Below, piece by piece: positions 21,401 through 58,200 of a DNA stretch of 64,000 nt. The position numbers and the translations under genes are program-made. Below the pieces are notes generated by a model. It saw only the letters and a list, made by a program, of their open reading frames with translations. It was not told the DNA's origin and did no database searches. The stretch comes from Bretschneidera sinensis. Lineage: Eukaryota; Streptophyta; Magnoliopsida; Brassicales; Akaniaceae. The DNA is taken from assembly GCA_023935145.1 (NCBI GenBank), contig CM043700.1, positions 142,844,828-142,908,827 on the forward strand. The letters run 5' to 3'. Every line of letters starts with the position of its first letter. The first letter of the stretch is position 1.

Positions 21401-23583
21401 ATAATAATTTTATTTAAAAAAAACTCTAAAAAAAATTTGTTAAATATGTTCCATCTATAATATATACTTATATTTTTAAAAAAAATAATATTTATAATAC
21501 TTAAAGATACTTTGATCAATATTAAAAATAATATTCAATAATAATTTTGATTTTTTAAAAAAAATTATTTTGAAAGGTTTATAGTAAAAATTTGTTCTTG
21601 ATATTAATATTATTTCTATAAATTTAAAAATAATGTAATATAATTTGTAAAATATTATTTGAGACTTTTTATTGGGCTTTGTGTCATTATGGATACTAAA
21701 GATAGGACATATCTCTAACAAGGGGGCTGCTTGGAGCTCATTGGCTGAAAAAACGGCCATTGAAAATGAAAGTAGAACTAATATTGGGAAAAGCATGCAA
21801 ATCTAATTTAGGAAAGACATCTTGCTCTATATTTAATTTAATGGTTTAGTCTAAAATTTATAATGAATTTATTTGAAAAAGCTTAAATTTAATTTTAAAT
21901 CAGTTGAAAAAGGAATACCATGAACTAAGCCTTTTGGTGAAAAAAGCAACACTAGTTAGCATATTCAGCTTCTCAGTTTAAAAAAATAAAACAAACGCCA
22001 AGGAAACATTGCCTTTGTGGTTTGTGCCACTATCAATATTTTTCGTATTTGTGGTCAATTTTTTTATTTTTTATAATTATATTTGGATTTCGATTTCAGT
22101 GTTAAATTCAAATGATACAATTTTATATTTTATTTTGTCTTTTGTTTCGATTTATTTCGATTAAAACATCATATTTCAATTAAAATACTACAATATAATT
22201 TTTATATATTTAAAATTTTATGAGAATAATTTAAAATTTTTTGTTATTCCTCTTCGATTATATGATATGAGCGATATATTATTCTTATCATTTGATATTT
22301 GAATGATAATTTTTTTATTATGAGATATTTTTATATAAATATATTTATAATTGATTGTAAAACAAAAATTTATGTAAAATTAATTTATATATTTTAATAA
22401 TAATTATTTTTTTATAATTATATTTTTTTAAATATATATTTAAAAATATTATTAAATCTAAAATGATACACCGAAATCGAAAGGTTCAATTTCAATTACT
22501 AAACCAACGAAATTTATCCTTGTTTAAATAGCAAAATCCCCATTTTGGCTTTTCGACGACCGGGAAATGGATTTTATACCCGAAAAGACCACATGGGCCC
22601 GGCAATTCTTCGTACTTCTTTTCTACTGTTCCCATTTAAAATTCCTTCCCGTTTCTCTTTTTCTTTTTTTATTAGTTAGCTCGATTTCAAATTTTTATTT
22701 AAGGATTTGACTCAATCCATAAAATAAAAAAAGGCAACCCACTCATATAAAAGCTAACCTTTTTTAAAAAAAAAAAAGGCATTTGGGTTTGTTACAGAAT
22801 CCAGACTTAGATCGGACTAGGCCACAACAAACCTTAAAGATAGTTTGGATTGGGCTATGATCTCTGTGGGATGCTGATTTTTGGGTTGGTAATAAAGCCA
22901 GTCAAAAACATTACGAGTCTTAAACCATCAAACTTGCTGTGTTTCAGCTTACCTTCTTATTAATTATTTTTTAGTATCTATTTTAATAACACGAGGCGTC
23001 TGAGGAATCAGAAACATTGAATACATTTGATGGTATTATCCAATTGAGGGTTGTTATTTCATTTTCTTTAGGAGAGATGGATTATAAATATTGCTCAGAT
23101 GCGCATGACCGCATGACTGTCCATTAGACAATTTGAATCAAGAACACCTTTATTTTCCATGAGATAAGTATCTGACCAACTTATAGCCCCACGGAGTAGT
23201 AGCTTTTCTTTGAGTCAAAGTATCATTATTCTAATCTCTAAGCAGAAAACAATCAAACTAAAACATGTTGGAATCTGCCTCTTTTCCCATGTGCTGCATT
23301 TCAAAAACCCATAAAAAAAGTAGCCTTAAAAAACAGTAAAATACCATCCACAGACCAGCATTAGCAGCCCTCAGAGACCGAGCATCCAGTGGATTCCTTT
23401 TGAGTAAAGTATTCAGAATTATATTATGTGGGAATGATAATTATCAATAATAAATAGACTGTTCAAATTGGGCTCTTTTCTTGAAGAACCTAAAAAGAAG
23501 GTACTGAAACCTAATCTGTCCTCAACAATAGTGTAATGTTGAGAGTATTTCCTTTCTATTAGTATGTTTTATCAAGGGTAACC
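18442..23583. other. Long AT-rich gene-free region
   Basis: The first few hundred bases are probably the GRF promoter and 5'UTR. From about 18.9 to 22.5 kb the sequence is extremely AT-rich with many homopolymers and no credible ORF. A GC-richer island at about 20345-20660 stands out but has no recognisable coding content. The last 500 bases precede the receptor kinase and are its likely promoter. Confidence 0.5.
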
Positions 23584-26500
23584 ATGTTCTTGTCATTCTC
23601 ATATCAAGTTCTCTTCTTTCTTACCCTTTTCTTAGCTTCTTCAGTCTCATTACACCCATCTGCTGTTTACCTTCTCCAATTTCTTACCAGTCTCCCAATA
23701 CAATCTCAACAACTCTTGCCATGGAACCAATCAAACTCACCTTCTTCACCTTGCGAATGGCCTGGAGTTTCTTGCTACCAAAACAACAAATTTCAAGTAA
23801 AGGCCTTGAATCTCTCAGGTTTTGGACTCTCTGGCATCTTAAACAATTCCATTTCCTATCTCTGCCTTCATAAACATTTGCTCTCTCTTGACCTCAGCGG
23901 CAACAATTTCACTGGTGCGTTGCCTCAATTGCTTGGAAACTGTGGACAAATCAGTACCATTCTTCTAAATGATAATGGGTTTCAAGGATCAATCCCCTCT
24001 GAGCTTTTTAGATCAAAACGGCTTTCAAGGCTCGACTTGGGCTATAATTCCCTTTCTGGTGAAATCCCTCTTGAGGTAAGATTCTGTACCAATCTTGAAT
24101 ATATTGGACTTTACAACAACTTCTTGCGTGGAGAGATTCCAACTAAAATATTTTCTCTACCAAATTTGAAGTTTCTATATCTAAACACAAACAACTTTAC
24201 TGGGTCATTACCAGATTTATCACCTTCATGTGCAATTCTTCATCTTTGGATTCACGAGAATGAACTTTCAGGATCTTTACCTCGTACCCTTTTTAATTGC
24301 CAAAACCTTACCATGTTTTTGGCATCTGACAACAATTTTGGAGGTATCATTCCACCAGAAAACTTCGAAGGTGTTTGGCAACTAGAAGTTCTCTATCTGA
24401 ATGGGAACAATCTTGAAGGGGGGATTCCAGAGAGTTTGTGGGCTCTTGAAAATTTGCAAGAGCTTGTTCTCTCAGTGAACAAGCTTAATGGAACTATATC
24501 TGAGAGGATTGGTCAATGTAATCAGCTTTCAGTTATTGCACTCTCTGGTAATAAGCTCATGGGTCAGATTCCTTCGTCAATAGGAAATCTCACTGCTTTG
24601 AATCAATTGTTTCTCTTTGATAACATGATTACTGGCTCATTACCTCGTGAGCTTGCAAACTGCAGTTCACTTGTTGAACTTAGGCTTCAAAATAACTTTC
24701 TTGTAGGAACTATCCCTCCAGAAGTTTGCAAACTTGAACTTCTTGAGGTTCTTTTTCTTTTCAACAATCGTATCGAAGGTTATATTCCTAAGGAGATTGG
24801 TAATATGAGCAGCCTTGTCCAGTTGGCTCTGTATAACAACAGTTTAAGTGGAAGAATCCCATCTGAATTAACCCATTTGAAGAAACTTACATTTCTATCC
24901 TTAGCTCACAATAATCTCAATGGAGAGCTGCCATCCATGCTTGGGAAGAATTCTCCTGGTTTAGTCAAATTGGATTTATCTGGGAACAGTTTTTACGGTT
25001 CGATTCCTTCTAGCATTTGTACTTACAACAAACTTTCAGTTTTAGCCCTTGGAAACAACCGATTCAATGGTAGTTTTCCAATTGAAATTGGAAAGTGTTC
25101 ATCACTCAGGAGGGTGATTCTCAGTAACAATCTTTTGCAAGGGAATATACCGGATGATTTGGATAAGAACCCTGGAATTCTTTTCATGGAGGTTACAGGA
25201 AACTTGCTTGAAGGAAAGATTCCCTCAGTTTTTGGTCAGTGGAGCAATCTGTCAATGCTCGATCTTTCCCAGAATAGGCTCTCGGGTTCTATACCTCCTG
25301 AGATTGGGGAGCTGAAGAATCTTCAAATTTTAAGACTTTCTTCTAACAGACTAACAGGAAGCATTCCATCTGAGTTGAGCTATTGCAAAAAGATAATCGA
25401 ATTAGACCTCAGCAAGAATTATCTTTCAGGAAGCATTCCTTTGAAGATAACATCATTGATCGATTTGCAAAGTCTTCGCCTTCAAGAGAACGAACTTAAC
25501 GGATCTATACCTGATTCTTTCTCGTCCCTACAAAATCTCATTGAGTTGCATCTTGGAAGCAACAGCCTTCAAGGCCCCATTCCTTGCAGTGTGAGTAATC
25601 TTAACCATTTCACTTCAGTTTTTAATTTGAGCAATAATAGGCTCTCTGGTGAAATCCCTGGATGTATTGGCAAACTAGACAAGTTAGAGAATCTTGATCT
25701 CTCAAGCAACAGTCTTTCTGGTGAGATACCAACAGAACTGAACAATATGATCTCCCTTTACTTTGTGAACATATCATTCAATCACCTTATTGGAGAACTC
25801 CCATCTGCTTGGATGAAGATGATGGCTTCCAATCCCAGGTCATTCCTCGGGAACCCAGAACTTTGCTTGTCAGGTAATGAAGATGGATTTTGTAGAAAAG
25901 TTGGTAAACACCATAATAACAGAGGCAGGTTGCTGGCTGGTGTCATTATTGGTGTGGTTGTCTCTGTAGCATTGCTTTGCGCTGTAATTTACATGTTGGT
26001 TGTTCGATGCCTTCAACAAAGATATTCCGGTGATCAATCTCTTCTCCATGAATGTCAATCAAAAACTGAAGATTTGCCTGAGGATTTAAAACTTGAAGAT
26101 ATAATGCGTGCTACTGAAGGATGGAGTGACAAGTATGTGATTGGAAGAGGAAAGCATGGGACGGTTTACAGGACGGAATCTTTAAAGTCAAGAAAACATT
26201 GGGCTGTTAAGAAGGTGAACTTGTCTGAGACAAACTTTACCGTTGAGATCTCATCTTTGAGCTTGATTAGGCACAGAAATGTGGTAAGAATGTCAGGCTA
26301 CTGCATCAAAGATGGATATGGTTTCATTGTGACCAAGTTCATGACTGGAGGAACTCTTTTTGATGTGCTGCACTGCAGTGAACACAGTCTGGTTTTTGAC
26401 TGGAAAACTCGATTTCAAATTGCTATTGGTATAGCTAATGGCCTTTCTTACCTTCACCATGATTGTGTTCCTCAAATTATCCATAGGGATGTCAAGTCAG

Positions 26501-27079
26501 ATAACATTCTGTTGGATTCTGAGTTGGAACCAAAGATTGGAGATTTTGGGATGGCAAAATTGATTCATGATTCTGATTCAAGCTCAACAATGTCCACAAT
26601 TGTGGGCACACTTGGCTACATAGCACCAGGTCGGTTTCTTTTTCACTTTATTTCTGTTATTTCCAACAATCTTGAGAATTTTATATCCTTAGAAGCTCAC
26701 TTTCTAAACAAAATCCTTTCTTGCCTTTTCTGTTCCTTCGACCCTTACAGAAAATGCGTACTCGACTCGGTTGACAGAGAAATGCGATGTCTATAGCTAT
26801 GGAGTCATTCTGTTAGAGATACTATGCAGAAAATTGCCAGTAGACCCCAGCTTTGAAGAAGGCCTGGATATCGTCTCGTGGACAAGGAAGAACCTAATGA
26901 AAAATGATGAATGTATTTCCTTCCTTGATGAAGAGATCAGTCTCTGGGATAGTGATGAACAACAAAAGGCACTAATACTATTGGAATTGGCACTTGAATG
27001 CACCGAACAAGAAGCTAATAATAGACCCTCCATGAGAGATGTAGTAGGATTTCTTATAAAGTTGAATGAGAAACACTAA
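23584..27079 (+). CDS. LRR receptor-like kinase (subfamily XI, PEPR-like)
   Basis: Two exons, 23584-26629 and 26751-27079, joined as CCAG|GTCGGT and TTACAG|AAAAT so that GYIAP continues to ENAYSTRLTEK; product 1124 residues. A signal peptide covers about residues 1-22. An N-terminal cap with CEWPGVSC is followed by more than twenty plant-type LRRs (LxxLxLSxNxLxGxIP) with many N-glycosylation sequons. A membrane segment spans about 783-805. The kinase has the P-loop GRGKHGTVY (about 853-861), the Lys of WAVKK, HRDVKSDN (about 966) and DFG (about 986), so it is an RD kinase expected to be active. The single intron inside the kinase activation region is characteristic of subfamily XI. Relatives perceive secreted peptides such as Pep/DAMP ligands; the ligand here is unknown. 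Confidence 0.93.
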
Positions 27080-35628: not shown

Positions 35629-38600
35629 CTATCTTCTGGAGGTTAACGAAGTCCCCGTAGTCCTGCAAGGCACAACATATCAAGTTCAATAAGTTTTAGA
35701 GCTACATAATGCATGACAATAGATTGCAGCCTTCTTATAAGTTGAACTATACCTGCCCTGCTGTTTCCGCACAAAATTCAAGTTAGACCTTCCCTGAGTT
35801 GAGACCTTACTTCTATCAAAATTTGCTCCATTGAGCTCACAAGGATCTTTAGATTTGCTCAAAATCTTTACATTTGAGAGGCCTTCAGCCAAACCAAAAG
35901 AAACACCATTTGGATGCTGATTCTGCATTGCGGACAGCTGTGAAGAATCAGCAGTTGCATTTGGAGTGATGAGAGCATACTCTTTGAAGACAGTCTTGTC
36001 AGTCTTCACATGGTTGGAATCCATTGAAGGAACCTTTTTCAACCGGTGAGACCGTGCCATAGGAGTAACAGCCAAAAATGAGGAGTAAGGGGATGATGCT
36101 GCAGCAGCTGCAGCAACTTTGGCAACAGCTGCTCTAGCTGCTATCATCTTTTGTGCTCCCTCTCGAAGTTGAATATAGTCACCCTCAATCACAAATAACT
36201 GAAATCACAAAATAAGATTCTCAGATACTAAAGTACACATATTTAAAGACATAAACTACTTTCTAGAAACTCACTTCTGGGTGACTTGCAACAAAGTCAT
36301 CCAACTTTCCGTACTTCTTCTTGTAATCATGCCAATGTAATGGTGCAAGCATTTTCCCTAGCCTATTTGGAAGCTGTCATTGACACAGATAACTTATATG
36401 ATTAGTCAGACCAATCAAACAGGTGTCAAGCATCATACTACTTACGGCCTTAAGAGTTATTGTTTGCTAACTCACAGTTGAACTGATCCGAATTCTAACA
36501 CCAGCTGGAATTGTACGAACTATGCAAGCCAACAGTGACCTTTCATCTAGCAGAGCATTCTCTGAAGTCCTTCCTGTTGTCCCAGTTGAGATCAAAGCTT
36601 CAGGCAAAACTGTACCAGTGCCATTGTTGATTCTGCTTTCATGGACATTAACTGAATGGACAGAAGTATCAGAAGGGGATGCACCAGCTGTAGAACCTTT
36701 TTGTTCTGCGGCCAAAAGCTGGCCCTCTAGTCCATGATTATTCAAGTTCAGAATGTTCTGCTCCTGGTGCCAGTTCAAATTTAGGATAATGTTAATATCT
36801 GATCTTACTCACCAGCCATTCTCAAGACCAACCAAACTGATCTGATGAAAGATAAAGAAAAAGGAGCAAAGACAAAGACAAACCTTAGATTCACTGTTCT
36901 GTTCAGGAGGGTCCAATCTTAAGGCCTCGTGAAATTGTGAAGAAATTTGTTGCAGGTTCTGCTCAGAATGGGGGGCAACATGATAATTTCCATCAATTGA
37001 CACAAAAACCTGCAAGGAAGAGTTTTAATAGGTCCTACCAATCACATCAAATAAAAAGGACAACATTGTGTACAGAAACATCTTTATGCAAATAACCTGT
37101 GCTTTCCCAGTTGATGATGACATCATTGAATCAGACTCCACCCCTTGGCTGATATGAACATCCAGATAGTCTGGACAAAGAGTGTGTTCATTAACAGACA
37201 CTTCATATTCATACTTAGCATCTGACCTCACCAGGCCATGATCAGCTTGAGAAGGTGGGATTTTGTTCTCTGTAGATATCTGTGAACCCTCTGATACAGT
37301 CTGAAGAAGAAATAAGAGAAACATTACATTACCATAAGCAAAGCATTAAAAAGAGATGAACCATGCCTTCATAAGTTAATTAATATATAGTATAGATAGA
37401 TACCTGTTGGTTCTGCCAATGTTGCATGGATGATATTGCTGGCATTGAGTGATAATGCCCAACCTGAGATTGAGGAACATGCGGTGGCACAGACTGGGGA
37501 ACCCCCTGTTGATGCATGACAAAAGAATGCAGAGCAGTCACCTGTCCAGGTGGAAGGTAGGCAGGCATCCCAAGTAGAGAAGATGGAGCAATTGCCACAC
37601 CAGGAACATGATCGGTCTAATAATAAGCATAATTCTTTATCAGAGTGATAGAACCAAAAGAAATGGGACTATAAAGAAGATACTGAAACATTTAACTTTT
37701 ACTTCCTCCACATATTTGATGAAATTTCCAGAAAAGAGGATTTATAGACAAATAAACAAGTGGGTTTTTATTGGTAATCACAAGAAAATAGTTTTCAAAC
37801 TCTTATTGAACATAGACCAAAATCCTTTTGTCTTAAATATTTTTACATAAAGTTATCAATAACATATACTATAGCATTACGTAATGTATAATAATATCGT
37901 AATGAGAATGTCTACAGCATTTTTTTAGGTAAGAGCATGTCTACAGCATTGAACCCCACAAGCAAATATTTATCATAATGTGGATGTCTCCAATTTTTTT
38001 ATAAGTAAAGCGTCTCCAAATTTTTTTGATAAGTAAAGCATGTCTCCAAATTAAGTTAGCTAAAACACTTTCGAAACGTTATCAATACTTACGAGCAGCT
38101 TCTTTTGATGCTTTTAGGCATAAAACCAAACATAACTTACAATAATCTCATGTGCTACCTAGTAATGTTCGTCCAGTTACTGCACCCCCACAGTACAGCA
38201 CCGACCTCCCAACAAACACTAATTTAATCAGATAAAAAAACAAAAGCATTCATCCATCAACTGCATTATAAACCAAAACAAGAACTAGAGGCCTTGAGAC
38301 AACTACATGAACCACACATGCACCAGATTTACAATGAGCCATCAAACAGGCAGGCATACCTTTCAATCACAAGTTTTAGAAAGATAGTTACTGTTGTGGC
38401 CATGGTCCGAGGGGTGACTCGGATCCCACATCGTTGAGTGAAAGGCAAGACTGGCGCCTTATAAGGGTGGGAGTCCTCACTCCCTCACGAGGCCTTTTAA
38501 AACCGTGAGGGACCTGCTCCCAAAGCGGACAATATCGTGAGCCAGTCTACCGGGATCTCATCAATGGCGCCGTCTGTGGGAACCCCGGAATTGACCAGAC

Positions 38601-41600
38601 ACAACCGCCAGTCTTCCCTTCACTGGGGGGCTATGTTGTGGCCATGGTCCGAGGGGTGACTCGGATCCCACATCGTTGAGTGAAAGGCAAGACTGGCGCC
38701 TTATAAGGGTGGGAGTCCTCACTCCCTCACGAGGCCTTTTAAATCCGTGAGGGACCTGCTCCCAAAGCGGACAATATCGTGAGCCAACGCCCTACCAGCT
38801 GAGCTAGGACGGCCCTCCTCAGTTCGGTCGGGGTGGTGGTCCCGCACCACCTCATGAGGCCTTCCTTAGGGGAACAAATCCGTGAGGGACCTGCTCCCAA
38901 AGCGGACAATATCATGAGCCAACGCCCTACCAGCTGAGCTAGGACGGCCCTCCTCAGTTCGGTCGGGGGTGGTGGTCCCGCACCACCTCATGAGGCCTTT
39001 TAAAACCGTGAGGGACCTGCTCCCAAAGCGGACAATATCGTGAGCCAGTCTACCGGGATCTCATCAATGGCGCCGTCTGTGGGAACCTCGGAATTGACTA
39101 GACACAACCGCCAGTCTTCCCTTCACTGGGGGGCTATGTTGTGGCCATGGTCCGAGGGGTGACTCGGATCCCACATCGTTGAGTGAAAGGCAAGACTGGC
39201 GCCTTATAAGGGTGGGAGTCCTCACTCCCTCACGAGGCCTTTTAAAACCGTGAGGGACCTGCTCCCAAAGCGGACAATATCGTGAGCCAGTGGCCTCGTG
39301 AGGGAGTGAGGACTCCCACCCTTATAAGGCGCCAGTCTTGCCTTTCACTCAACGATGTGGGATCCAAGTCACCCCTCGGACCATGGCCACAACATAGCCC
39401 CCCAGTGAAGGGAAGACTGGCGGTTGTGTCTGGACAATTCCGGGGTTCCCACCATTGATGAGATCCCGGTAGACTGGCTCACGATATTGTCCGCTTTGGG
39501 AGCAGGTCCCTCACGGTTTTAAAAGGCCTCGTGAGGGAGTGAGGACTCCCACCCTTATAAGGCGCCAGTCTTGCCTTTCACTCAACGATGTGGGATCCGA
39601 GTCACCCCTCGGACCATGGCCACAACAGTTACCATCATGATACTTAAAAAAGAAGTTACTTAAGACAACAAACTATGCACTGTCATCCATTATGATTGGT
39701 GGCCTTCACATATTGAAACACAGCATATGGTTTTCCTTTTTCTTTTCATTTCCTATAACCGAACAAGACAGGCGTACATCAACCCCGACCAACCCCATTC
39801 AACCCATTAACCACCTTTTTTTATATAAATAACCCATTGACCGCCTTAGTAAAGACAGAAGGGTACGGAGACAAGTTTGTAATTTTGTACTACTGGGAAA
39901 ATTTGTAATTTTATAATATGGGGCAAAGTTATAATTTTATAATATGAGGCAAATTTGTATTAGGATTAGGGCTTCCTTATTTACAGTGTTAGCTTGAGGT
40001 TAGGATTCTTAAAAATCCCTCTAGAAGGGGATCCCTAAGTTACTTTTCGATTAGCTTTGAATAAATAAAAATCATATTGATATTGGGTATCGATTCCTCT
40101 CGACCTCCGGAGTAGCCTGGGATTCTTTTCCTATCCCCAGGGTAGCACATTCTCTTCCAATCTCATGGTAGCCTGGCTTCTATTTCTTATTCTATTACTG
40201 TTCTACATCAGTTTGGTATCAAAGCCTAAACTGATCCCTAAACTCAAATCCAAAAGCAAACCCACATATACAGCCATCCCATTAACACTAGTGCACAATC
40301 TGCCCAGACACATACTCACGAACCAAACAGGACCTTAGGGCAAAACGGCTTAAAGGCAAATTCGTCACTCTCTGATCACCACCAACCCACACCGCCACCA
40401 CCACTCACCTTGCCAGGCTTGGGCGACCAGAACCTAAGCCCTCGATCCAATCCTCCACGCATCGCCGCGAGTGACCACCACGCGCCGTGCAACCACTCAC
40501 CGTAGCCAAACACGCCACCAGGACCAGAAAACCTTATCTACTCACCCTCGGCACACACATGCCAGTATCTTGACCTTAACACGGCCAAATCTCACAAAAT
40601 ACCATCGTTCATGTTGACCAGTCCTTTCCCAGCGTCAGAACCGTCATCTGTACCGGAAAGGGTCGATCTAGTCATCCCACTCACCTCACCCGCCTGAGCC
40701 GACCATAGCCTGAGATTTTCGGGCTCATCTGCCAAGCGCCGCCCAACGCAGCCGCCACGCGCCTCCGCCAGAATCGCAACAACACCCGACCATCCACATT
40801 GCCAGGATCGGAATCGGCCGATCTATCCATTCTCTATGTCCACGTGCCATTCTATTGGCCGAATCTCGGCCAAATCACACAAACGCTACCACGCCCCACC
40901 TTCACCGATCTCCACCTCCAATCACTTTCGTACCGAACCACCACCACCACCGTGATCGCCAGCCTCAAGCGATCATAACCTAGCGAGGTCAATCCCAATC
41001 GCCACCGCCATGATCGCTGTCAGCACCAAAGTCACGAAGTGCTGTTTTGTTTCCAAATTGTCTATTTCACAGAGAAGCTTAGTTGTTACTGTTACTTATA
41101 TTTACAATTTTTTAATTTAAAAAAAAAGTGGTCGAAAAGAAAAGGACCAAAAAAAGAGTGGGAAAGAGAAAAGGCAAAAAGAGAAAGTAAAAAAAAAAAG
41201 ATAAAGACCGAACTGATGTAGAACAATAATAGAATAAGAAATAGAAGCCAAGCTACCCTGGGGATTGGAAGAGAATACCAGGGGGATAGGAAAAGAAGCT
41301 AGGCTACCATGGAGATCGAGAGGAATTGATAATCTAATTTTTATTATTTATTCAAAACTAATCGAAAAGTAACATAGAGGATCTCTTATATAAAAATCTT
41401 TAGGAATTCTATCGTTTCTCATGAGGATAAAATTTTGACGATGAATGTCCATTGTGGAGGTGCTTCAAACCAAACAGTGAGGATAAAATCAACATCAGTA
41501 GGATGCATATCAACCACTGCCTCAATCATGCCTTCAATCTTTTCTCTTGACTTGGAAGTTTGTTCCTTCGTACTTTCGTCATTGACTGTCTTTTCAATAT

Positions 41601-49400: not shown

Positions 49401-52224
49401 GATAAAAAAAAATGTATCAAATAACTTTCAAAAAAATGTATTAAATAGATAAAAGAGCTGGTATTCTTTCATACCATTTTTAGTTATTCTGACAACCTTA
49501 AATTGATTTCAACACCTTTTTAACAAACATGTTATAATATTTAAAATTTAATTAAATATTAAATTATAATATTATACTAATAAATGATAAATTGATTTAT
49601 GGTTTAATTGTAAATTTTTCTCTAAGTTTAGGGTTAAGTAGTAATTTGCCTTATGAGTTTTTAAAATAAATAATTTAACTTTGACAATGTCAATTTATAG
49701 CAATTCAATCCATTAGTCTGATTTTGACAAAAAAATTTATCGAAAAACTTAATATATTTATCAATTACCGCGTCAGATGGTTAAAATTACCGAAAAATTT
49801 AATATATTTGCTATATGATGTGGCAAGTTAAAAAAAAAAAAAATTTCGATAATCTTTTAGTCATAATTTGATCGAAATTAGATCGATGGATTGAATTGCT
49901 CTAAATTGATAAAATCATAAATTAAATAGTTCTTTTTAAAATTTAAGATGACAAACTGTTACTTAACTCTAAATTTTTTTTTAAAAAAAATTACAATTTA
50001 GCCTTCACTTTTTCAACAATCAATCCCAAACAAGTTTGATGGCTGACAATGACATGCAATTTGTTAATTAGTATTAGACACTCAAATCCATCTTAAAATA
50101 GCATGACCCGTGAAGGTGACTACACTTGTTTCATTCATTTGTTTTCTTTTTTGAATAGAAAAAAAAAAATAAGGTGCGTCACATACACTACAAAGGAAAG
50201 CATCAAGTGAAATGAGGAGGATATTCAATCTACTAATGAGCATATTATTAACTTTATCTACAGTATGAACAAAACATCTACGATTTGTTCAAAGAAACCT
50301 CAACAAGGTGACCTTCTGGAACTTCAACGGCAACTAGTTTTGGTTTCGATTCCAAGTCTCCAACAATATTGTGGTTTTTACTTTTCAAGAACGGTTTGTT
50401 GGCATCTGCACAAATTTTCTACAATAACACGTTTTTTCTTATGAATCAATTTGATTTATTCAATCGACAAGTCAATTGTCTTGTGTGCCCAAAATTTCCA
50501 TTGAAAAGTCTAGTATTATACCTTTATAATAACTTGATATTATGCCTTCAATTAAATTTACAGGACAATATTAAATATGGTTGGTTTGGATCTAAAATTT
50601 ATATTTTAGTTTTAGATTATTTGGAAACTTCATTGATAATTTTAAAAAACTTTACTGATAATGTTATTTTTTGGATCACATATCTATACTTACGTTACTG
50701 TTGACGTCGAAAATGTGTTTGCTGAGCTAGAGGTCGGGCCTCGACGAAACTTGCACAGGATAAAGAGGATGAGCTAAGGGGTCGCTGGAGGAGATGCCTC
50801 CGAAAATGCTCCAAAGCTCTTGTTAGTATGTGGTAAGGTGCACGGAAGTAGTAGTGTTCTCTTTTTAGGTCAAGAAAGGTCTGATCGTTTAGAATGCGCA
50901 CATGAGTCTCTTTATAGAGTTTTAAGGCAGCCTTCTACCCAGGGTGGTGATGACGTGAAGTCCCAACTTGGTTGGGCAATGATGCCAAAGAGGCCCGACT
51001 AGGTAGTATGGGGTCGTCCGTTTGTGCTTCGTTTTGCTATCTTGATCAGGAGCCGTCTATGTATAAGGGCGGCTTTTAGGCCAAGGGCGATTTAGTGACT
51101 TGGAGGGCGATGATAACCTGAAGCGTGGGCTCTCTTGTGTGTTGACTTTGTTGCCTATCCATTTGGTGGTCCACATGTTATCTCTTTATTGGATGTGATT
51201 TTTTAACTGTATCAGTTACTAATAAAACTCTTTAAAATTATCGGTAAATTTTCAATGGATCTAAAACCAACCATCTGACCAAATTTTTTTCTAAGTATAA
51301 TAGGCTTTTGCTAGTCTTGCAATGTTAAAGCTTTATTTTATTTGGTTGATTGAAGCAATAATGATACAAATCAAAACTAAAATATTACTCTTATGGTTTA
51401 ATTTTTATATTCTTTTTTTCTTTTCATAATTTGAGAAAAATAATATAATTAGAATAACACATATTATTAACAATCGCTATTTCAATGAATTTTCAAATCA
51501 CATAATAGTGACAAGCTTTTTATATTTTATTCTTTTTTAAAGAATAAAATTGGGTGAAAGTTGAACTTCAATATTACACACAAAAATTTATGCATTCTCA
51601 CTTTCACATGTTATTTGCCTTCAATAAATTTGCATAAATTATTTATTTTAGATTTGTTTTTCAATATTATCAGATACCACCAATTTTTAGGTAAAATTTA
51701 TCGCTTTTTTTGTTTGTTTATGTTTTGTAAAGACTTAGAAATTAAAAGAAAGCAAAACTAATTATAGTCTAATTTATTTTTTTTTTTTTAAATTTCAATT
51801 CACTAATTTGGAAGAATTTGAGAGAGCTGTAATTTAGAATGAAAAATCTCAAACTTTCCCATTTTTTTTTCAATATAAAAAATGTAATGATTTTTTTTTA
51901 TATAAAAAAAAAAAGGGAAATCAATGAAGACATGCATGATTACAGTCGTTTTTGTCGACCATTGATAAGAAAATGTTTAACCGAATGAGACGGGTTCACA
52001 TAGACCCAATAAAAACCAATAGAAGAAATATGACTGTCACTATAAACACCTCAGTTCGCTGGCGTCATAGTTTTATTATTTCAACCTTTTCAAATTTATA
52101 GCAAGCCAACAACGTTTTCATCTCCTCCATTTTCTCTCTCAATTCTCTCGTCGGTGTTACTAGTCAAGTTCTCAAGGCTAAGTTACTTTGACCGATCAGT
52201 CCATACAGATCTCCTCATCCAACG
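46454..52224. other. Intergenic region upstream of the CRK gene
   Basis: The first 400 bases are GC-richer and hold the divergent-side promoter of the coiled-coil gene (pyrimidine/GA tracts near 46690-46750). The range 46.9-48.3 kb is AT-rich and empty. A less AT-rich patch at 48480-49150, with repeated TTGGTG units near 49090-49120, has only low-complexity ORFs. A patch at about 50700-51190 is GC-richer and may be an old mobile-element piece, but no domain can be read. The last 150 bases are the CRK leader. Confidence 0.45.
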
Positions 52225-55200
52225 ATGGGCCATTGCTTCAGCAAAAACGTCTCCGCGGCGGTCAACAATGACACAATCGCTGCCGGCAACCAACCAAAGC
52301 CGTCGCCGCAGCAACAGTCTCTGGATTCTCCTGCGCCGCCAAACTACGAAGTCGACTCCTTCGCCGGCAGCCCGTTCCCAAGCCCGCTGCCGGCTGGGGT
52401 TCCACCATCGCCGTCTCCGGCGAGGACGCCGGGGAGGAAGTTCAGGTGGCCGTTGCCTCCTCCGTCTCCGGCCAAACCGATCATGGCGATCATGAGGCGA
52501 CGCGGCGCGGCCAAGCATCCGAAGGAAGGCCCGATCCCCGAGGACGGAGGAGAAGGAAACGGAGGAGGAGAGAGGGCGCTGGACAAGAATTTTGGTTACG
52601 CGAAGAACTTCGGCGCTAAGTACGAACTAGGGAAGGAGGTCGGGCGGGGGCATTTTGGTCATACTTGCTGGGCGAAGGCCAAGAAGGGAGAGCTCAAAGG
52701 ACGGTCTGTTGCTGTCAAGATCATCTCCAAAACTAAGGTGTGTCTTTCTTTGGTATCATCATGTCTTACTAGTTCTAATTTCTTTGTACTATATATGTAA
52801 AATTCCTTGATATTTAAGTCATACGTGGATTTTGTTTTTTTTTCAAAAATGTCCTATGGCCTATGTGCGCCACTGGGGATTTGAGAAGTGCAGGGGAAAT
52901 TCATGGTTGAGGCAAATACGACGAGAATACAACTGCAATGAAAGTAGTTGTTAGACAATTTCTGGTTGGTTAACTTTTGAAGAGATAGGGTAGGGAGAAA
53001 ATGCAAAAAGAACAAAAAAATAAGAGAGGAGAAAAGAGAATAGCATGTTACTTGGCAGTTTGGGGAATTAGCAGAGCATTTGAGGAGCAAAGTGTGTGGT
53101 AGTGTAGTAGTGTATACTGTTGTGTTCTCATAATAACTCTCTTGACTCATTAGATTTTTTTTTTTTTTTTTGGGGGGGGGGGGGGGTGGTGGATTAATTG
53201 ATGCACAACTGGAGTTGGTAATGTTGTGAATTCCAGGAGCTGGAAAATAAAAACAAGGTTCACAAATATGTATTTTTCAGGAACTACTTTTCTTTTTTTA
53301 AGGAATGGTTTGATGCAGTCAAATTTTTTTGTTCAAGTTGCTTCTTTAACCTCACCTTTTTATTAGTATAGAAAAATGGTGTTGATATTAAATTTAATTG
53401 CTGGGATGTTGTTAGCTACAACCGGGTTTGTTACTTCTAACCCAAGTGCTTATGATCACTGTTGAAAATTTTTAACCTCTTTCCTTTTTTTTTTGTAATT
53501 CAAAGTTCTTTTCTTACCTTCCAACAATTCTTCTAAGTCTTACATTTTTTTAGTACACTAAAATCTTTTGGTTTACTTAGTTGACCACACGGGTTTCTAT
53601 TGAGGAGCATTAGTAACCGAGTGTTATTTGGCAGATGACAACAGCAATATCCATTGAAGATGTTCGTCGGGAGGTGAAACTATTGAAAGCCTTATCTGGT
53701 CATAAGCATACGATCAAATTTTATGATGCATTTGAGGATGCCAATAATGTCTATGTTGTCATGGAGTACGTATGTCCTTGTTCATTTATTTTTTATGGCT
53801 CAGTATTTTTGGTTGCATATCTACATATGGGAATCTTTGCACAGTTGTAAAGCCAACTAAAATGAACTTTTCTTTGAAGATTAAAAACTTTGCTAAGAAA
53901 AACTTATCAGTTAAGCTGATTTTGTGGATGTATTAGTCTTTGCATACTTTCTGCACCATCACAGATGACAGAACTAAGAAATTTTGTCTGAAGTAATCAA
54001 AATCTTGTTTTCTTGTCAGGTTATGTGAAGGTGGAGAGCTACTGGACAGAATTTTATCAAGGTAGAAAAGGAATTCTTATCTCATTGACTCTTTGTATTA
54101 CCTGAGGCTGAGGCCACTTTTAGTTTTATTGTAAATTTATGAGTTTTGTTTGACGGTTTTCTTTATTACTTCTTTGTTGCAGAGGTGGTAGATACACTGA
54201 GGAGGATGCTAAGAGTATTATCGTGCAAATTTTAACGGTAGTTGCTTTCTGTCATCTTCAAGGTGTTGTGCACCGTGATCTAAAGCCGGAGGTATAGCAT
54301 AGTACATATGATAATTTAATGCTAATTCACTTATTTTCTCATTTAAAATAATTATTTATTAGTGAAATGAAATGGTGGTGCATGTGCATGTGCAGAATTT
54401 TCTCTTTACCACAAGAGACGAGGATGCTCCAATGAAGATTATTGATTTTGGTTTATCTGATTTTATTAGGCCAGGTAATGGTCCTTATCCAATGACTATT
54501 TTTTCAAATTGAAATGGTATTTTATGTGAATAACTACACTGATGTAGCAAAAATAATAGACCTAGTTATTTCTTATCTTTTTTTTTTTTTTAAACCTATC
54601 AATTTGATATAAAAGTGCACTTTGATGGACTAGTGAAAAGTAGTAAAATTTTTTTTCTGACATATGCTTCCTGGAAAAATTAAATGTGAATTCCTTCTGA
54701 ACAAAATCTAGGTTTGGTAGAATTGCTAAATGATTAGGAATTTGAATCTACAAAGGAACAGAGCAAAGGGCCTTTGGTTTGCTAGTTGCTTGGAATCTAC
54801 AGTCCTTGTTGAGGTTCAGTGGGTGATATCCACGTGGAAAAGGAAATGGGCAAGTGAAGGTCATATATGGTGGTGGACATAGAACCCTTTGGCTGAAGCT
54901 TTTGGGTTCAACTGTGGTCCTAAGCTATATATTTTAGCACTTCCTGCCCCAACTATTCTCAACTTGGGACCTTACATTCCAGCAGTCCCTTTTGCTTCCT
55001 TATGTACTAATGTCCCAGAAAGATTATGTTCCTGAATTATTGAATGTCTTCTCGCAAAGTACAAACTCTTGCTGCCTGGTGATAATATATGCATAATTTA
55101 TATTATGCTAAATCAGCATCAATTTATTCTTGAGAAGTGAAAACAATTCATTCTGTTCATAAAATGGATTCCCTTGATCGTACCTGATGGTAATAATAAG

Positions 55201-58200
55201 CTAAAAACCTGATCACCTTTATACAACTGACTACTTACATAGCTCTTAGGCTCTTTTGGAATGTAAAAGTATCGTGTTATGCCTGCTAATAATATTGCAT
55301 GGGTTAACTTGGGATTAGAATATTGTGAGAGGGAAAAGGCTTCCAGACAATGTTTGATCCTGTGCTATTTATATTAAATTGTAAAGGCATAATTACAAAT
55401 ATACTCCTTAACACCCCCTCTCAAGTTGGAGCATATATATCATATGCATCGAACTTGTTACAGATAGATCTAACCCGTGGATCATCCAATTGCTTAGTAA
55501 ACAATTGGTATGCTAACTGATATGTTGATTTTACATGTTTTGTACGAATAACATTCAGTAAAAGTTTAATCAACTTTAATATGCTTTGTCTTCTCATGAA
55601 ACACACCGAATTAGTTGCAATATGAATAACTCATAGAACGTGACTGCTCAAACCCAAGTTTTGTCAGGCTATGCACTTGATCTAGCAACTATTCTATGTT
55701 TCTGACCTTTCCATGACACTATATTACCCCAACAAACACACAATATCCAATGGGAGTGTTAAGGGGTATACTTGTAATTATGCCTTTGTTTATTATAAAT
55801 AGCACAGGACTACTACAACCGATATGGAAATCTCTCTGAGTGATCATGCTCATGCTAAATTTCTCTATTGGTTGTCTTTTCTTGGATGTTTCTTTTTTCC
55901 TGAAAGTGTGGTATTTGTCTGGCCACTTATTAAGAGATCAAAGCTGGCCTTCATATTCACTGTCATCCAAGTGTTTCATTAGTTTAGCTGGGATATTAAC
56001 CATGCTTCCGAAAGCATGTGTTGACTAGGACCATTTGGAAACAATTAGACACTGTAACTCCCAATTGGAGATTGGTAAGGACTCATAAAGACTTTTTGTA
56101 ACATATATTTCAGGGTAGGCTTTCTAGCCTCTCCATGGGAAGTTTAATCCCTTAGTTTTGATAAAGTCACAGATAAAGGGTTCATGAGGCACACATTATT
56201 GCAGTTAGCAGCCTGGGTATAGCTCAATTAGATTGTGTTGTAATGGATTTATGACTTGAAATAGTTTCTTGCCACTGATTACCCAATTTTGCTCTGTGGA
56301 ATGCTTTCGTTCATTTGAGTTGCACACATGCATCTTTTATTCTCAAGTGCTTTCAACTGCATATTACATCCAAACAGTGAAATATTTGTGTGTGTGTGTG
56401 TGTGTAAATCTATTTCTGTTAGTCTAATTAAAAGAAAAAGAGGCATGTGAACTTCCAGCACTCTTTGCAAAAATGCTATCTTTGTTGGTGCAGTATGTTG
56501 ACAATTATTTCCCTTTGAATTCATGGGGACATGTCATCCGTTGTAAGTTTGAAAACAGAACATTCAACCTTTCACATTTGCAGATCAACGACTCAATGAT
56601 ATTGTTGGCAGTGCATACTATGTTGCACCTGAAGTTCTCCACAGATCTTACAATCTTGAAGCAGATATGTGGAGCATTGGTGTCATAGCATACATATTAT
56701 TATGTGGAAGCAGACCTTTCTGGGCCAGAACTGAATCGGGAATTTTTCGTTCTGTGCTAAGAGCTGATCCAAACTTTAAAGATTCACCATGGCCTGCAGT
56801 ATCACTGGAAGGCAAAGATTTTGTAAAAAGGCTTCTTAGCAAGGACCACAGAAAAAGAATGACTGCTGCCCAAGCTCTAAGTAAGTTATGTCTGAATATT
56901 TTACCATAAAGATGAACACTACATTATATATCTTTTCCTCATGGAAAGTAATGTAAATGCTTTGCATTTGCAGCTCACCCATGGTTACGAGATGAAACCC
57001 GTGCTGTGCCTTTGGATATTTTCATCTACAAGTTAGTCAAGTCATATGTTCGTGCCACACCTTTTAAACGAGCAGCACTAAAGGTAGTAGCCTGATATGT
57101 TCTTTTTAATGAAGAACATACTACCATTCTTCTCATCCTTCATGTCCTTGGGAACCAAAAAATGTTTTAAAAAGAATAATAATCAGTAAGGTGGCTTATG
57201 CTTGATATCCAGGCAGCTTGCCTTTAGTGGCACATGTGGCACATATGTGGCCCACCTTTTGGGGCAAGTTAGCCTTCCACTTGATGATATCTAATTGTAA
57301 ACTACACATGGTGTCCTCTGCAATCTCCTGATCTGTAATAGTTCTTTTTGCTGCTTCTTAATATGATTGCAGGCTCTTTCAAAAGCTATACCAGGAGATG
57401 AGCTTGTGTATCTTAGGGCACAGTTTCGGCTACTGGAACCAAAAGATGGATGTGTCACCCTTAATAATTTTCGGATGGTTGGTTGGTGCTTCCTTTTTTT
57501 AGTATTCATGTAATGTTTGAACTTGGGTTTTTGATTTAGCGGTGGTAGTTTATATGGTAACCGATGTTGTGATTTCCATTTGTTATCCACCATAGTTTCT
57601 CATCACTATTTAATTTCTTGTGAAGTGCAGGCTTTAATGAGACATGTGACTGATGCCATGAGGGAGTCAAGAGTTCTTGACATTTTAAATGCGGTGAGAT
57701 AACTTGGTGTATCTTAATTATTTTCAAGCAGCATAACTCAATATAGCTAAGAACAAAGAATGCAGTGGTTCCACATTTCAGTGTAGTTCATAATATATTC
57801 TGTTTTCCTCATCATATGCATATTTGTGTGTATGTATTGTGTAAGCCTTTGCGTGATATGAAAGTGGTGAATGATTCCATAATTTAGGATTAGAAAGACA
57901 TATATGGCCAGTCTATTTCCTCAGGAAACATAAAAGAAACTTCTTCCATGTCTTCTTGCGTTCTTGCAATATTGTTCCCTATTGATAATCGGAGATTTGA
58001 TCTTTAGAGTAATTCTTAGTTAGACTGTGCCTAATAGACTAAACCAATCATGAGTTGCCACTTCAAAATTTATTAGATAATTGATATTTTAAAATCTACA
58101 AGTTTTTAAAAATGGTGAAACATGATTGATGTAGTCTACAATTCATGTGTTAGATCTTAAAATGAATAAATGTTGATGACCAAAACTGTTGATCTGTTCA

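What the first reader, a model, noticed from the sequence alone, without database searches (positions are those of the whole stretch)
38387..39632. TRIM element integrated as a tail-to-tail inverted multimer with one shared 5-bp TSD
Seen directly: both outer ends are the U3 (TG) ends of the same 172-bp LTR, in opposite orientations, and GTTAC flanks the whole 1236-bp array. A normal LTR element would end with a U5 (CATCA) terminus on the right. A later inversion would need a breakpoint exactly at the element edge to give this picture. The simplest reading is that a palindromic, two-U3-ended cDNA (from autointegration, template switching or end joining of two cDNAs) was used by an integrase as one substrate. 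The outer LTRs look identical, so the event is recent. This is an unusual and possibly undescribed amplification route for non-autonomous retroelements.
Basis: partly seen in the sequence, partly recalled or inferred. Interest (0 to 1): 0.9.

Follow-up and report, generated by a model that had tools for sequence, protein, structure and literature searches.

The report
Retroelement inserted by two matching ends
In this apparently plant genome, 14 of 40 insertions read of a tiny LTR retroelement carry the same (U3) end on both outsides around an inverted array, 11 of them inside a perfect 5-bp target duplication; this likely means that DNA copies are folded or joined tail to tail before an integrase inserts them, and one inverted array of this kind of element has already been reported in maize.

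Summary
A 1236-bp array (38392-39627) of a non-coding TRIM-like element (172-bp LTR, 70-bp internal region) has U3 tips on both outsides, identical outer LTRs and GTTAC on both sides. It is not a lone accident. I read 40 insertion loci of the family in the host genome: 15 are U3-U3 ended (14 with TRIM U3 on both sides, one with a gypsy-type U3 opposite a TRIM U3; 12 perfect 5-bp TSDs), 25 are U3-U5, none is U5-U5. The census is near-complete at best. The tail-to-tail centres look like accidents of linear cDNA before integration: two U5 ends joined through ATAT, primer-binding-site letters, hairpin turns, and once 389 bp of plastid-type ycf3 DNA as filler. The gypsy/TRIM insertion points to a Ty3/gypsy-type helper integrase. 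Autointegration by a U5 end is not supported for this copy. An inverted TRIM array with one TSD is already in print for maize (Gao 2016, Fig. 2C legend). What appears new is the frequency, the polarity and the junction signatures. All mechanism steps are inferred from sequence.

The parts
38387..38391 (.). left 5-bp target-site duplication GTTAC
38392..38563 (+). L1: complete 172-bp LTR, U3 tip at the left outer edge
38564..38633 (+). I1: 70-bp internal region, PBS-like start (ATGGCGCCGTCTG), PPT-like end (GGGGGGCTA)
38634..39066 (+). L2: composite LTR (LTR 1-153/154, variant units spaced 126-135 bp, then LTR to 172)
39067..39136 (+). I2: 70-bp internal region, 2 differences from I1
39137..39291 (+). 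L3: LTR 1-155, lacks the last 17 bp (no U5 end)
39291..39292 (.). tail-to-tail junction LTR 155 | LTR 103, no microhomology found
39292..39394 (-). L4: inverted LTR, positions 103-1 only
39395..39455 (-). I3: inverted internal region, 61 bp, 9-bp deletion in the PBS; has the I1 base at both places where I1 and I2 differ
39456..39627 (-). L5: complete inverted LTR, U3 tip at the right outer edge, identical to L1
39628..39632 (.). right 5-bp target-site duplication GTTAC (direct)

Best explanation
This is a TRIM-like retroelement array with U3 tips on both outer edges and one GTTAC duplication, and it was likely inserted in a single step by a retroelement integrase acting on two U3 ends of a tail-to-tail (palindromic) cDNA made before integration. 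Inferred steps: (1) TRIM RNAs are reverse transcribed with the proteins of a Ty3/gypsy-type helper, and RT jumps between repeats build multi-unit arrays. (2) The U5 side of the linear cDNA (3' end of the plus strand) is lost or left unprocessed and is joined to a second cDNA by end joining, or snaps back on itself and primes synthesis. Either way the product has U3 at both ends. (3) The integrase inserts the two U3 ends and leaves a 5-bp TSD. For the window copy end joining is the better of the two, because the centre has no microhomology and the right arm resembles the outer rather than the adjacent left unit. Likely consequence: the two U3 regions face each other, so a transcript would fold into a long LTR hairpin.
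For: U3 tips on both outsides, direct GTTAC repeat, identical outer LTRs. In 40 loci: 15 U3-U3 (12 perfect TSD, 2 at 4 of 5, 1 unmatched; one of the 12, L020, pairs a gypsy-type U3 with a TRIM U3), 25 U3-U5 (17 perfect, 2 at 4 of 5, 6 none), 0 U5-U5; control 6 of 1560. Among 19 arrays with inverted units: 15 U3-U3, 4 U3-U5, 0 U5-U5. Exact genome-wide patterns: two loci with directly joined U5-U5 ends, none with directly joined U3-U3 ends. Junction signatures: CATCA|ATAT|TGATG in L011 and L013 (two U5 ends each keeping AT); PBS letters kept at L033 (CATCAATGGCGCC joined to LTR 67, where GGCGCC also occurs) and L020; hairpin-consistent turns at L041 and L009 (TCCGAG/CTCGGA), L014 (TGAG/CTCA) and L017; a 389-bp plastid-type filler at L027 (ycf3; plastid group II intron). 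Helper: L020 has a 678-bp gypsy-type LTR U3 end on one side and a TRIM U3 tip on the other inside TSD GGATT; L047 and L048 have TRIM LTRs at the two outer edges of what looks like one element with gypsy-like sequence, TSD AGATT; L054 carries gag, RT, RNase H and rve in Ty3/gypsy order with a similar PBS (86% over 21 bp). RSV integrase concerted-integration assays use donors that each carry a single, gain-of-function U3 end (PMC3579926, one passage).
Against: No reads, no related accessions and no empty site were seen: the joined-flank search did not complete. Some junctions recur in separate insertions (ATAT in L011 and L013; the same breakpoints in L016 and L018; the same stub in L009 and L041), so part of the set may be copied rather than formed anew. 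The window junction has no microhomology, so fold-back is not shown for it. L033, and 6 of 25 U3-U5 loci, have no matching TSD. My first automatic table called L009 U5-U5 with no TSD, because the unit search missed a 20-bp U3 stub; reading the sequence gave U3-U5 with TSD GTTGC, and that correction is mine. The census is incomplete: one search scored 40 of 124 candidates and cut its list, and a U5-U5 array has no outer U3 tip to be caught. The polarity could come from integrase preference rather than from how the cDNA forms. The helper is inferred from chimeras only. The plastid-type filler could come from a nuclear copy; the search for it did not complete.
Confidence: 0.85

Rival explanations
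1. An ordinary U3-U5 TRIM array inserted first, and a later inversion, gene conversion or fold-back repair flipped its right part.
For: Internal head-to-head turns exist in L009, L014, L016 and L021 inside U3-U5-ended arrays, so flips inside arrays do occur.
Against: The breakpoint would have to fall exactly at the element edge beside an intact TSD, and to do so in 12 loci with perfect TSDs. The right flank repeats the left TSD directly; inverted flank matches were 0 in the 34 rows. No U5-U5 product was seen in the 40 loci.
Confidence: 0.05
2. Autointegration: the U5 end of one cDNA attacked another cDNA and gave the inverted form, which was then integrated.
For: Autointegration is reported to give inverted DNA circles for HIV-1 (PMC5314604, passages).
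Against: It should leave one precise processed U5 end at the centre. In the window both arms lack it (LTR 155 | LTR 103). Where U5 ends are kept at a centre, several carry extra letters (ATAT, PBS letters, filler).
Confidence: 0.03
3. The U3-U3 arrays are a terminal-inverted-repeat DNA transposon lineage moved by an integrase-like (Ginger-type) transposase, not cDNA products.
For: U3 tips on both outsides look like TIRs, and some junctions are shared by separate insertions.
Against: PBS- and PPT-like motifs sit where a retroelement needs them, ordinary 414-bp LTR-internal-LTR copies and solo LTRs with 5-bp TSDs exist in the same family, and I count 16 different centres in 19 inverted loci.
Confidence: 0.05
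4. Assembly chimera or collapse of repeats.
For: Palindromic repeats are hard to assemble, and no reads were available.
Against: An artefact would not be expected to produce matching 5-bp TSDs at 12 separate loci. Maize TRIM arrays of this kind were confirmed by PCR and sequencing (PMC4717578).
Confidence: 0.02

Closest known systems
Tandemly arrayed TRIMs (TA-TRIM), maize Zma-SMART inverted array AC220956:117725-118283, TSD CTTCA (Gao et al. 2016, PMC4717578, Fig. 2C legend)
   Same: TRIM units in inverted order inside one 5-bp TSD; arrays of that figure checked by PCR and sequencing
   Different: Passages and legend seen, figure not held. One inverted case is named in the legend, and the passages I saw give no end polarity and no mechanism for it. 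Here 14 of 40 loci carry TRIM U3 on both sides, with junctions that suggest how.
Cassandra TRIM tandem arrays (PMC7215508, passages)
   Same: short non-coding LTR units in arrays
   Different: The passages describe tandem arrays found with outward-facing primers; Cassandra LTRs carry 5S rRNA (PMC4717578 passage), and no 5S match was found here
Wukong TRIM of maize (PMC4528315, passages)
   Same: 72-bp internal region, multi-LTR elements, 5-bp TSD
   Different: LTRs said to be usually in one orientation, explained by recombination
Retroviral 2-LTR junctions made by end joining (PMC5314604, passages)
   Same: ends of linear cDNA ligated by host end joining
   Different: There the two LTR ends of one molecule join into a circle; here U5 is joined to U5 and the product integrates. 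A U5-U3 type junction (CA|GATC|TG) is also present, in L047.
Inverted LTR loci as silencing triggers (Mu killer type; EVD antisense nested insertion, PMC11624286, passages)
   Same: opposed LTRs that could give hairpin RNA
   Different: There a rearrangement or nested insertion is invoked; here the inverted form appears to arrive ready made

Membership tests
[quoted passage not shown]
   172-bp LTR TGTTG...ATCA; 414-bp LTR-internal-LTR copies L034 and L036
[quoted passage not shown]
   ATGGCGCCGTCTG after the LTR and GGGGGGCTA before it; the priming tRNA was not identified
[quoted passage not shown]
   70-bp internal region; no reading frame of 110 aa or more in the array
[quoted passage not shown]
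   29 of 40 loci perfect, 4 at 4 of 5, 7 without
Cassandra TRIM | 5S rRNA in the LTR | tested here: not met
   no 5S match in Rfam scans
DIRS-type elements (inverted terminal repeats) | tyrosine recombinase, no TSD (recalled) | tested here: not met
   5-bp TSD present
Ginger-type DNA transposon (integrase-like transposase) | TIRs as the normal form and an encoded transposase (recalled) | tested here: not met
   25 of 40 loci have U3-U5 ends; no frame of 110 aa or more in the window array
Ty3/gypsy as helper | gag, RT, RNase H, integrase in that order; termini or PBS shared with the TRIM | tested here: inconclusive
   L054 has the domains in that order and a similar PBS; the chimeras L020 and L047+L048 link the two; trans-mobilisation itself was not tested

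The most novel reading that the evidence does not exclude
In this TRIM family the palindromic, two-U3-ended cDNA is a regular transposition intermediate: the integrase needs a U3 tip, the U5 end is dispensable, and every such insertion plants a ready-made LTR hairpin that could silence its own family and helper.
Probability: 0.35. Interest if true: 0.85.

Novelty: new variant of a known kind. Interest (0 to 1): 0.64.

Why it matters
Opposed LTRs that could give hairpin RNA are proposed triggers of retrotransposon silencing, and the paper seen on this (PMC11624286, passages) puts them down to rearrangement or nested insertion. Here 19 of 40 loci read hold inverted units, and 14 of 40 carry TRIM U3 on both sides in a form that appears to have been made before integration. 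If so, hairpin loci are a routine by-product of reverse transcription. The polarity (U3-U3 but no U5-U5 among 40) makes two questions directly testable: which cDNA end fails or folds back, and which end a plant Ty3/gypsy-type integrase really needs. It also suggests that LTR finders that rely on direct LTRs would miss or mislabel such copies.

Tried and rejected
Autointegration by U5 ends: no processed U5 end at the window centre. Post-insertion inversion: would need edge-exact breakpoints at many loci. Cassandra: no 5S rRNA. tRNA gene in the variant units: ARAGORN and Rfam give no tRNA. A viral-contig scan with an 18-letter LTR word found nothing. A protein search to name the host gave mostly unnamed proteins among the 120 of 546 listed; two rows bear plant species names (Citrus sinensis 90%, Sarracenia purpurea 84%, over part of a kinase exon), so the species is not settled. 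Seven paper searches were answered. Their lists are capped or short (3 to 20 rows shown, out of up to 959 papers), I opened passages of eight papers only, and the library lacks most subscription journals; in what I saw, only Gao 2016 names an inverted TRIM array. A script for exact microhomology gave no usable value for several loci, so junctions were also read by eye.

Census limits: one search scored 40 of 124 candidates and cut its list. I fetched 35 clusters from it and 7 more found by tip patterns, 42 in all. L049 (a 43-bp fragment) was dropped before counting, L043 is a segmental copy of L020 and was counted once, L047 and L048 are taken as the two ends of one element, and the window was added: 40 rows. 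In one search the end types of the window, L009, L020, L044-L046, L050 and L047+L048 were entered by hand; the flank letters were read by the script. Searches listed 100 of 195 and 100 of 136 tip matches. The 41 tips not preceded by A all lie in loci I fetched or in the window; two of them are inside L010 and not outer. One search gave 5 U5 ends not followed by A (exact 18-letter match), all in known loci. The patterns for tips preceded by A, and for U5 ends followed by A, did not complete.
Full report
What is there. The window carries a 1236-bp array at 38392-39627 flanked on both sides by GTTAC in the same orientation. Its parts are a 172-bp LTR (TGTTG...ATCA) and a 70-bp internal region with a PBS-like start and a PPT-like end, spaced at 242 bp as in a TRIM. 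The left part runs forward (L1-I1-composite L2-I2-L3) and the right part backward (L4-I3-L5). Both outer edges are U3 tips, and the outer LTRs are identical over 172 bp. The centre joins LTR position 155 to inverted LTR position 103 without microhomology. I3 carries the I1 base at both places where I1 and I2 differ, and has its own 9-bp deletion in the PBS and one private base. So the right arm is not a simple copy of the neighbouring left unit.

The family in its genome. The host genome (1.21 Gb, 550 contigs) was reachable only intermittently. A search with the array gave 324 matches, with 40 of 124 candidates scored and the list cut. A U3-tip pattern gave 195 tips against 1 for the reversed pattern. 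I fetched and mapped 42 clusters, besides extension pieces. Canonical 414-bp copies (L034, L036), tandem arrays, solo LTRs (L044-L046, L050) and inverted arrays all occur.

End polarity. tabulates 40 insertion loci. U3-U3: 15, with 12 perfect TSDs (window GTTAC, L011 ATGAG, L013 AAACT, L017 CAAAG, L018 ATATG, L022 AGATA, L031 ATACC, L032 CAGGG, L038 CCTAT, L039 ACCAT, L041 ACATC, and L020 GGATT, whose left U3 belongs to a gypsy-type LTR), two at 4 of 5 (L027, L037) and one unmatched at the edge (L033, where the left AAATT recurs one base further right). So 14 have TRIM U3 on both sides, 11 of them with a perfect TSD. U3-U5: 25, with 17 perfect, 2 at 4 of 5 and 6 without. U5-U5: 0. An earlier automatic table had labelled L009 U5-U5 without TSD, because a 20-bp U3 stub had been missed; read directly, L009 is U3-U5 with TSD GTTGC. 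Flanks paired across different loci match in 6 of 1560 cases. Among 19 arrays with inverted units, 15 are U3-U3 and 4 are U3-U5. The 41 tips not preceded by A all lie in loci that I had fetched or in the window; two of these are internal to L010. Exact patterns find directly joined U5-U5 ends at two loci and directly joined U3-U3 ends at none. If either end could equally be the buried one, 12 U3-U3 against 0 U5-U5 has a chance of 0.0002 (0.0005 by the same rule with the 11 TRIM-only loci). This assumes independence, which shared junctions weaken, and a census without bias against U5-U5, which I could not fully test.

How the centres look. I count 16 distinct tail-to-tail centres in 19 loci. 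L011 and L013: CATCA-ATAT-TGATG, two U5 ends each carrying AT beyond the CA, as expected of unprocessed ends. L022, L033, L037 and L020 also keep bases beyond the CA; L033 and L020 keep the PBS start ATGGCGCC. In L033 the PBS copy GGCGCC meets the GGCGCC of the LTR and the sequence then runs backward to the U3 tip, which fits a plus-strand 3' end that folded back and primed. L041 and L009 turn inside a small inverted repeat of the U3 (TCCGAG/CTCGGA), L014 at TGAG/CTCA, and L017 in a hairpin of the variant unit. L038 turns at the palindrome TTTTAAAA. The window, L031 and L032 show little or no overlap. L027 holds 389 bp of plastid-type DNA between its two U5 sides: part of ycf3 (NCBIfam E 2.8e-31, 108.8 bits, below that model's cut-off of 143 for a full protein) with a plastid group II intron, so DNA and not spliced RNA was captured; whether straight from a plastid or from a nuclear copy is open. 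Filler of this kind is a known mark of end joining (general knowledge). Together these point to accidents at the U5 side of linear cDNA before integration, by end joining in some copies and fold-back priming in others. These steps are inferred.

Copying of arrays. The ATAT centre, the L016/L018 breakpoints, the L009/L041 stub and one head-to-head turn (L014, L016, L021) each occur in insertions with different TSDs. Either the sites are favoured, or some inverted arrays are themselves copied. U3-U5-ended arrays with an inverted middle could do this by ordinary retrotransposition. I could not separate the two.

Helper. L054 (beside TRIM L025) holds a Ty3/gypsy-type element: gag PF03732, RT PF00078, RNase H, rve PF00665 in that order, read piecewise as it stands, and its PBS resembles that of the TRIM (86% over 21 bp). 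L020/L043 starts with a 678-bp LTR that matches the L054 LTR at 71-77% and two LTRs in L047 at 81%, runs through the PBS into a TRIM array and ends in an inverted TRIM U3 tip, TSD GGATT. L047 and L048 lie about 14.8 kb apart edge to edge, with a TRIM LTR at each outer edge and TSD AGATT. L047 holds two gypsy-type LTRs joined by CA|GATC|TG, and L048 shows gypsy-like sequence after the PBS (by eye against L054). I take them as one element; the roughly 11.5 kb between the two fetched pieces was not read. These chimeras suggest shared particles and a shared integrase; they do not prove it.

What is known. Gao et al. 2016 (PMC4717578; passages and the Fig. 2 legend seen, figure not held) define tandemly arrayed TRIMs and list one inverted maize case with TSD CTTCA, with PCR and sequencing. 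Wukong (PMC4528315, passages) has LTRs usually in one orientation; Cassandra (PMC7215508, passages) forms tandem arrays. Retroviral cDNA ends are joined by NHEJ (PMC5314604, passages). RSV integrase is assayed for concerted integration with donors carrying a single gain-of-function U3 end (PMC3579926, one passage). LTR hairpins have been looked for as triggers of EVD silencing (PMC11624286, passages). In the capped lists of seven searches and the passages opened I saw no description of frequent two-U3-ended insertions or of the polarity.

Consequence. A transcript across 38494-39525 is predicted to fold at -744.8 kcal/mol with long near-perfect stems (no shuffled control at that length). Promoters in the two opposed U3 regions would make such RNA from either side; no promoter was tested. 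This is a prediction only.

Verdict. The form has one precedent that I found. Its frequency, its U3-U3 polarity, the cDNA-end signatures and the mixed gypsy/TRIM insertion make it a new variant of a known kind.

Noticed in passing
window 38788-38814 and 38923-38949 (minus strand): The variant units in L2 contain GGCCGTCCTAGCTCAGCTGGTAGGGCG, which reads like the 5' half of a tRNA with an A-box (recalled; not matched by ARAGORN or Rfam).
   Followed up: partly
window 39217-39313: The palindrome centre gives a weak Rfam match to the MIR473 precursor (26.2 bits against a cut-off of 52); probably only the hairpin shape.
   Followed up: no
L027 1823-2211: 389 bp of plastid-type DNA (ycf3 with group II intron) sits between two U5 sides of a two-U3-ended TRIM array; searches for its other copies in the genome did not complete.
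   Followed up: partly
L047 1223-2792 with L048 1333-1504: What looks like one element of about 14.8 kb with TRIM LTRs at both edges, TSD AGATT, gypsy-like sequence and two gypsy-type LTRs joined by CA|GATC|TG, like a 2-LTR junction; the middle was not read.
   Followed up: partly
L020 and L043: The same gypsy/TRIM chimera lies twice on contig C4, about 54 kb apart; a 3001-bp stretch upstream (including part of the LTR) is identical: a recent segmental duplication.
   Followed up: partly
L014, L016, L021: The same head-to-head turn (internal region into LTR 46) occurs in three insertions with different TSDs, at a 15-nt near-inverted repeat shared by LTR and internal region.
   Followed up: partly
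L025 and L054 9180-9862: A TRIM copy abuts, head to head, the U3 side of a Ty3/gypsy-type LTR and has no TSD of its own.
   Followed up: no
window 23563-27079 and 52192-56909: Reading frames that look like an LRR receptor kinase and a calcium-dependent protein kinase (read by eye; a kinase match for part of the second).
   Followed up: no
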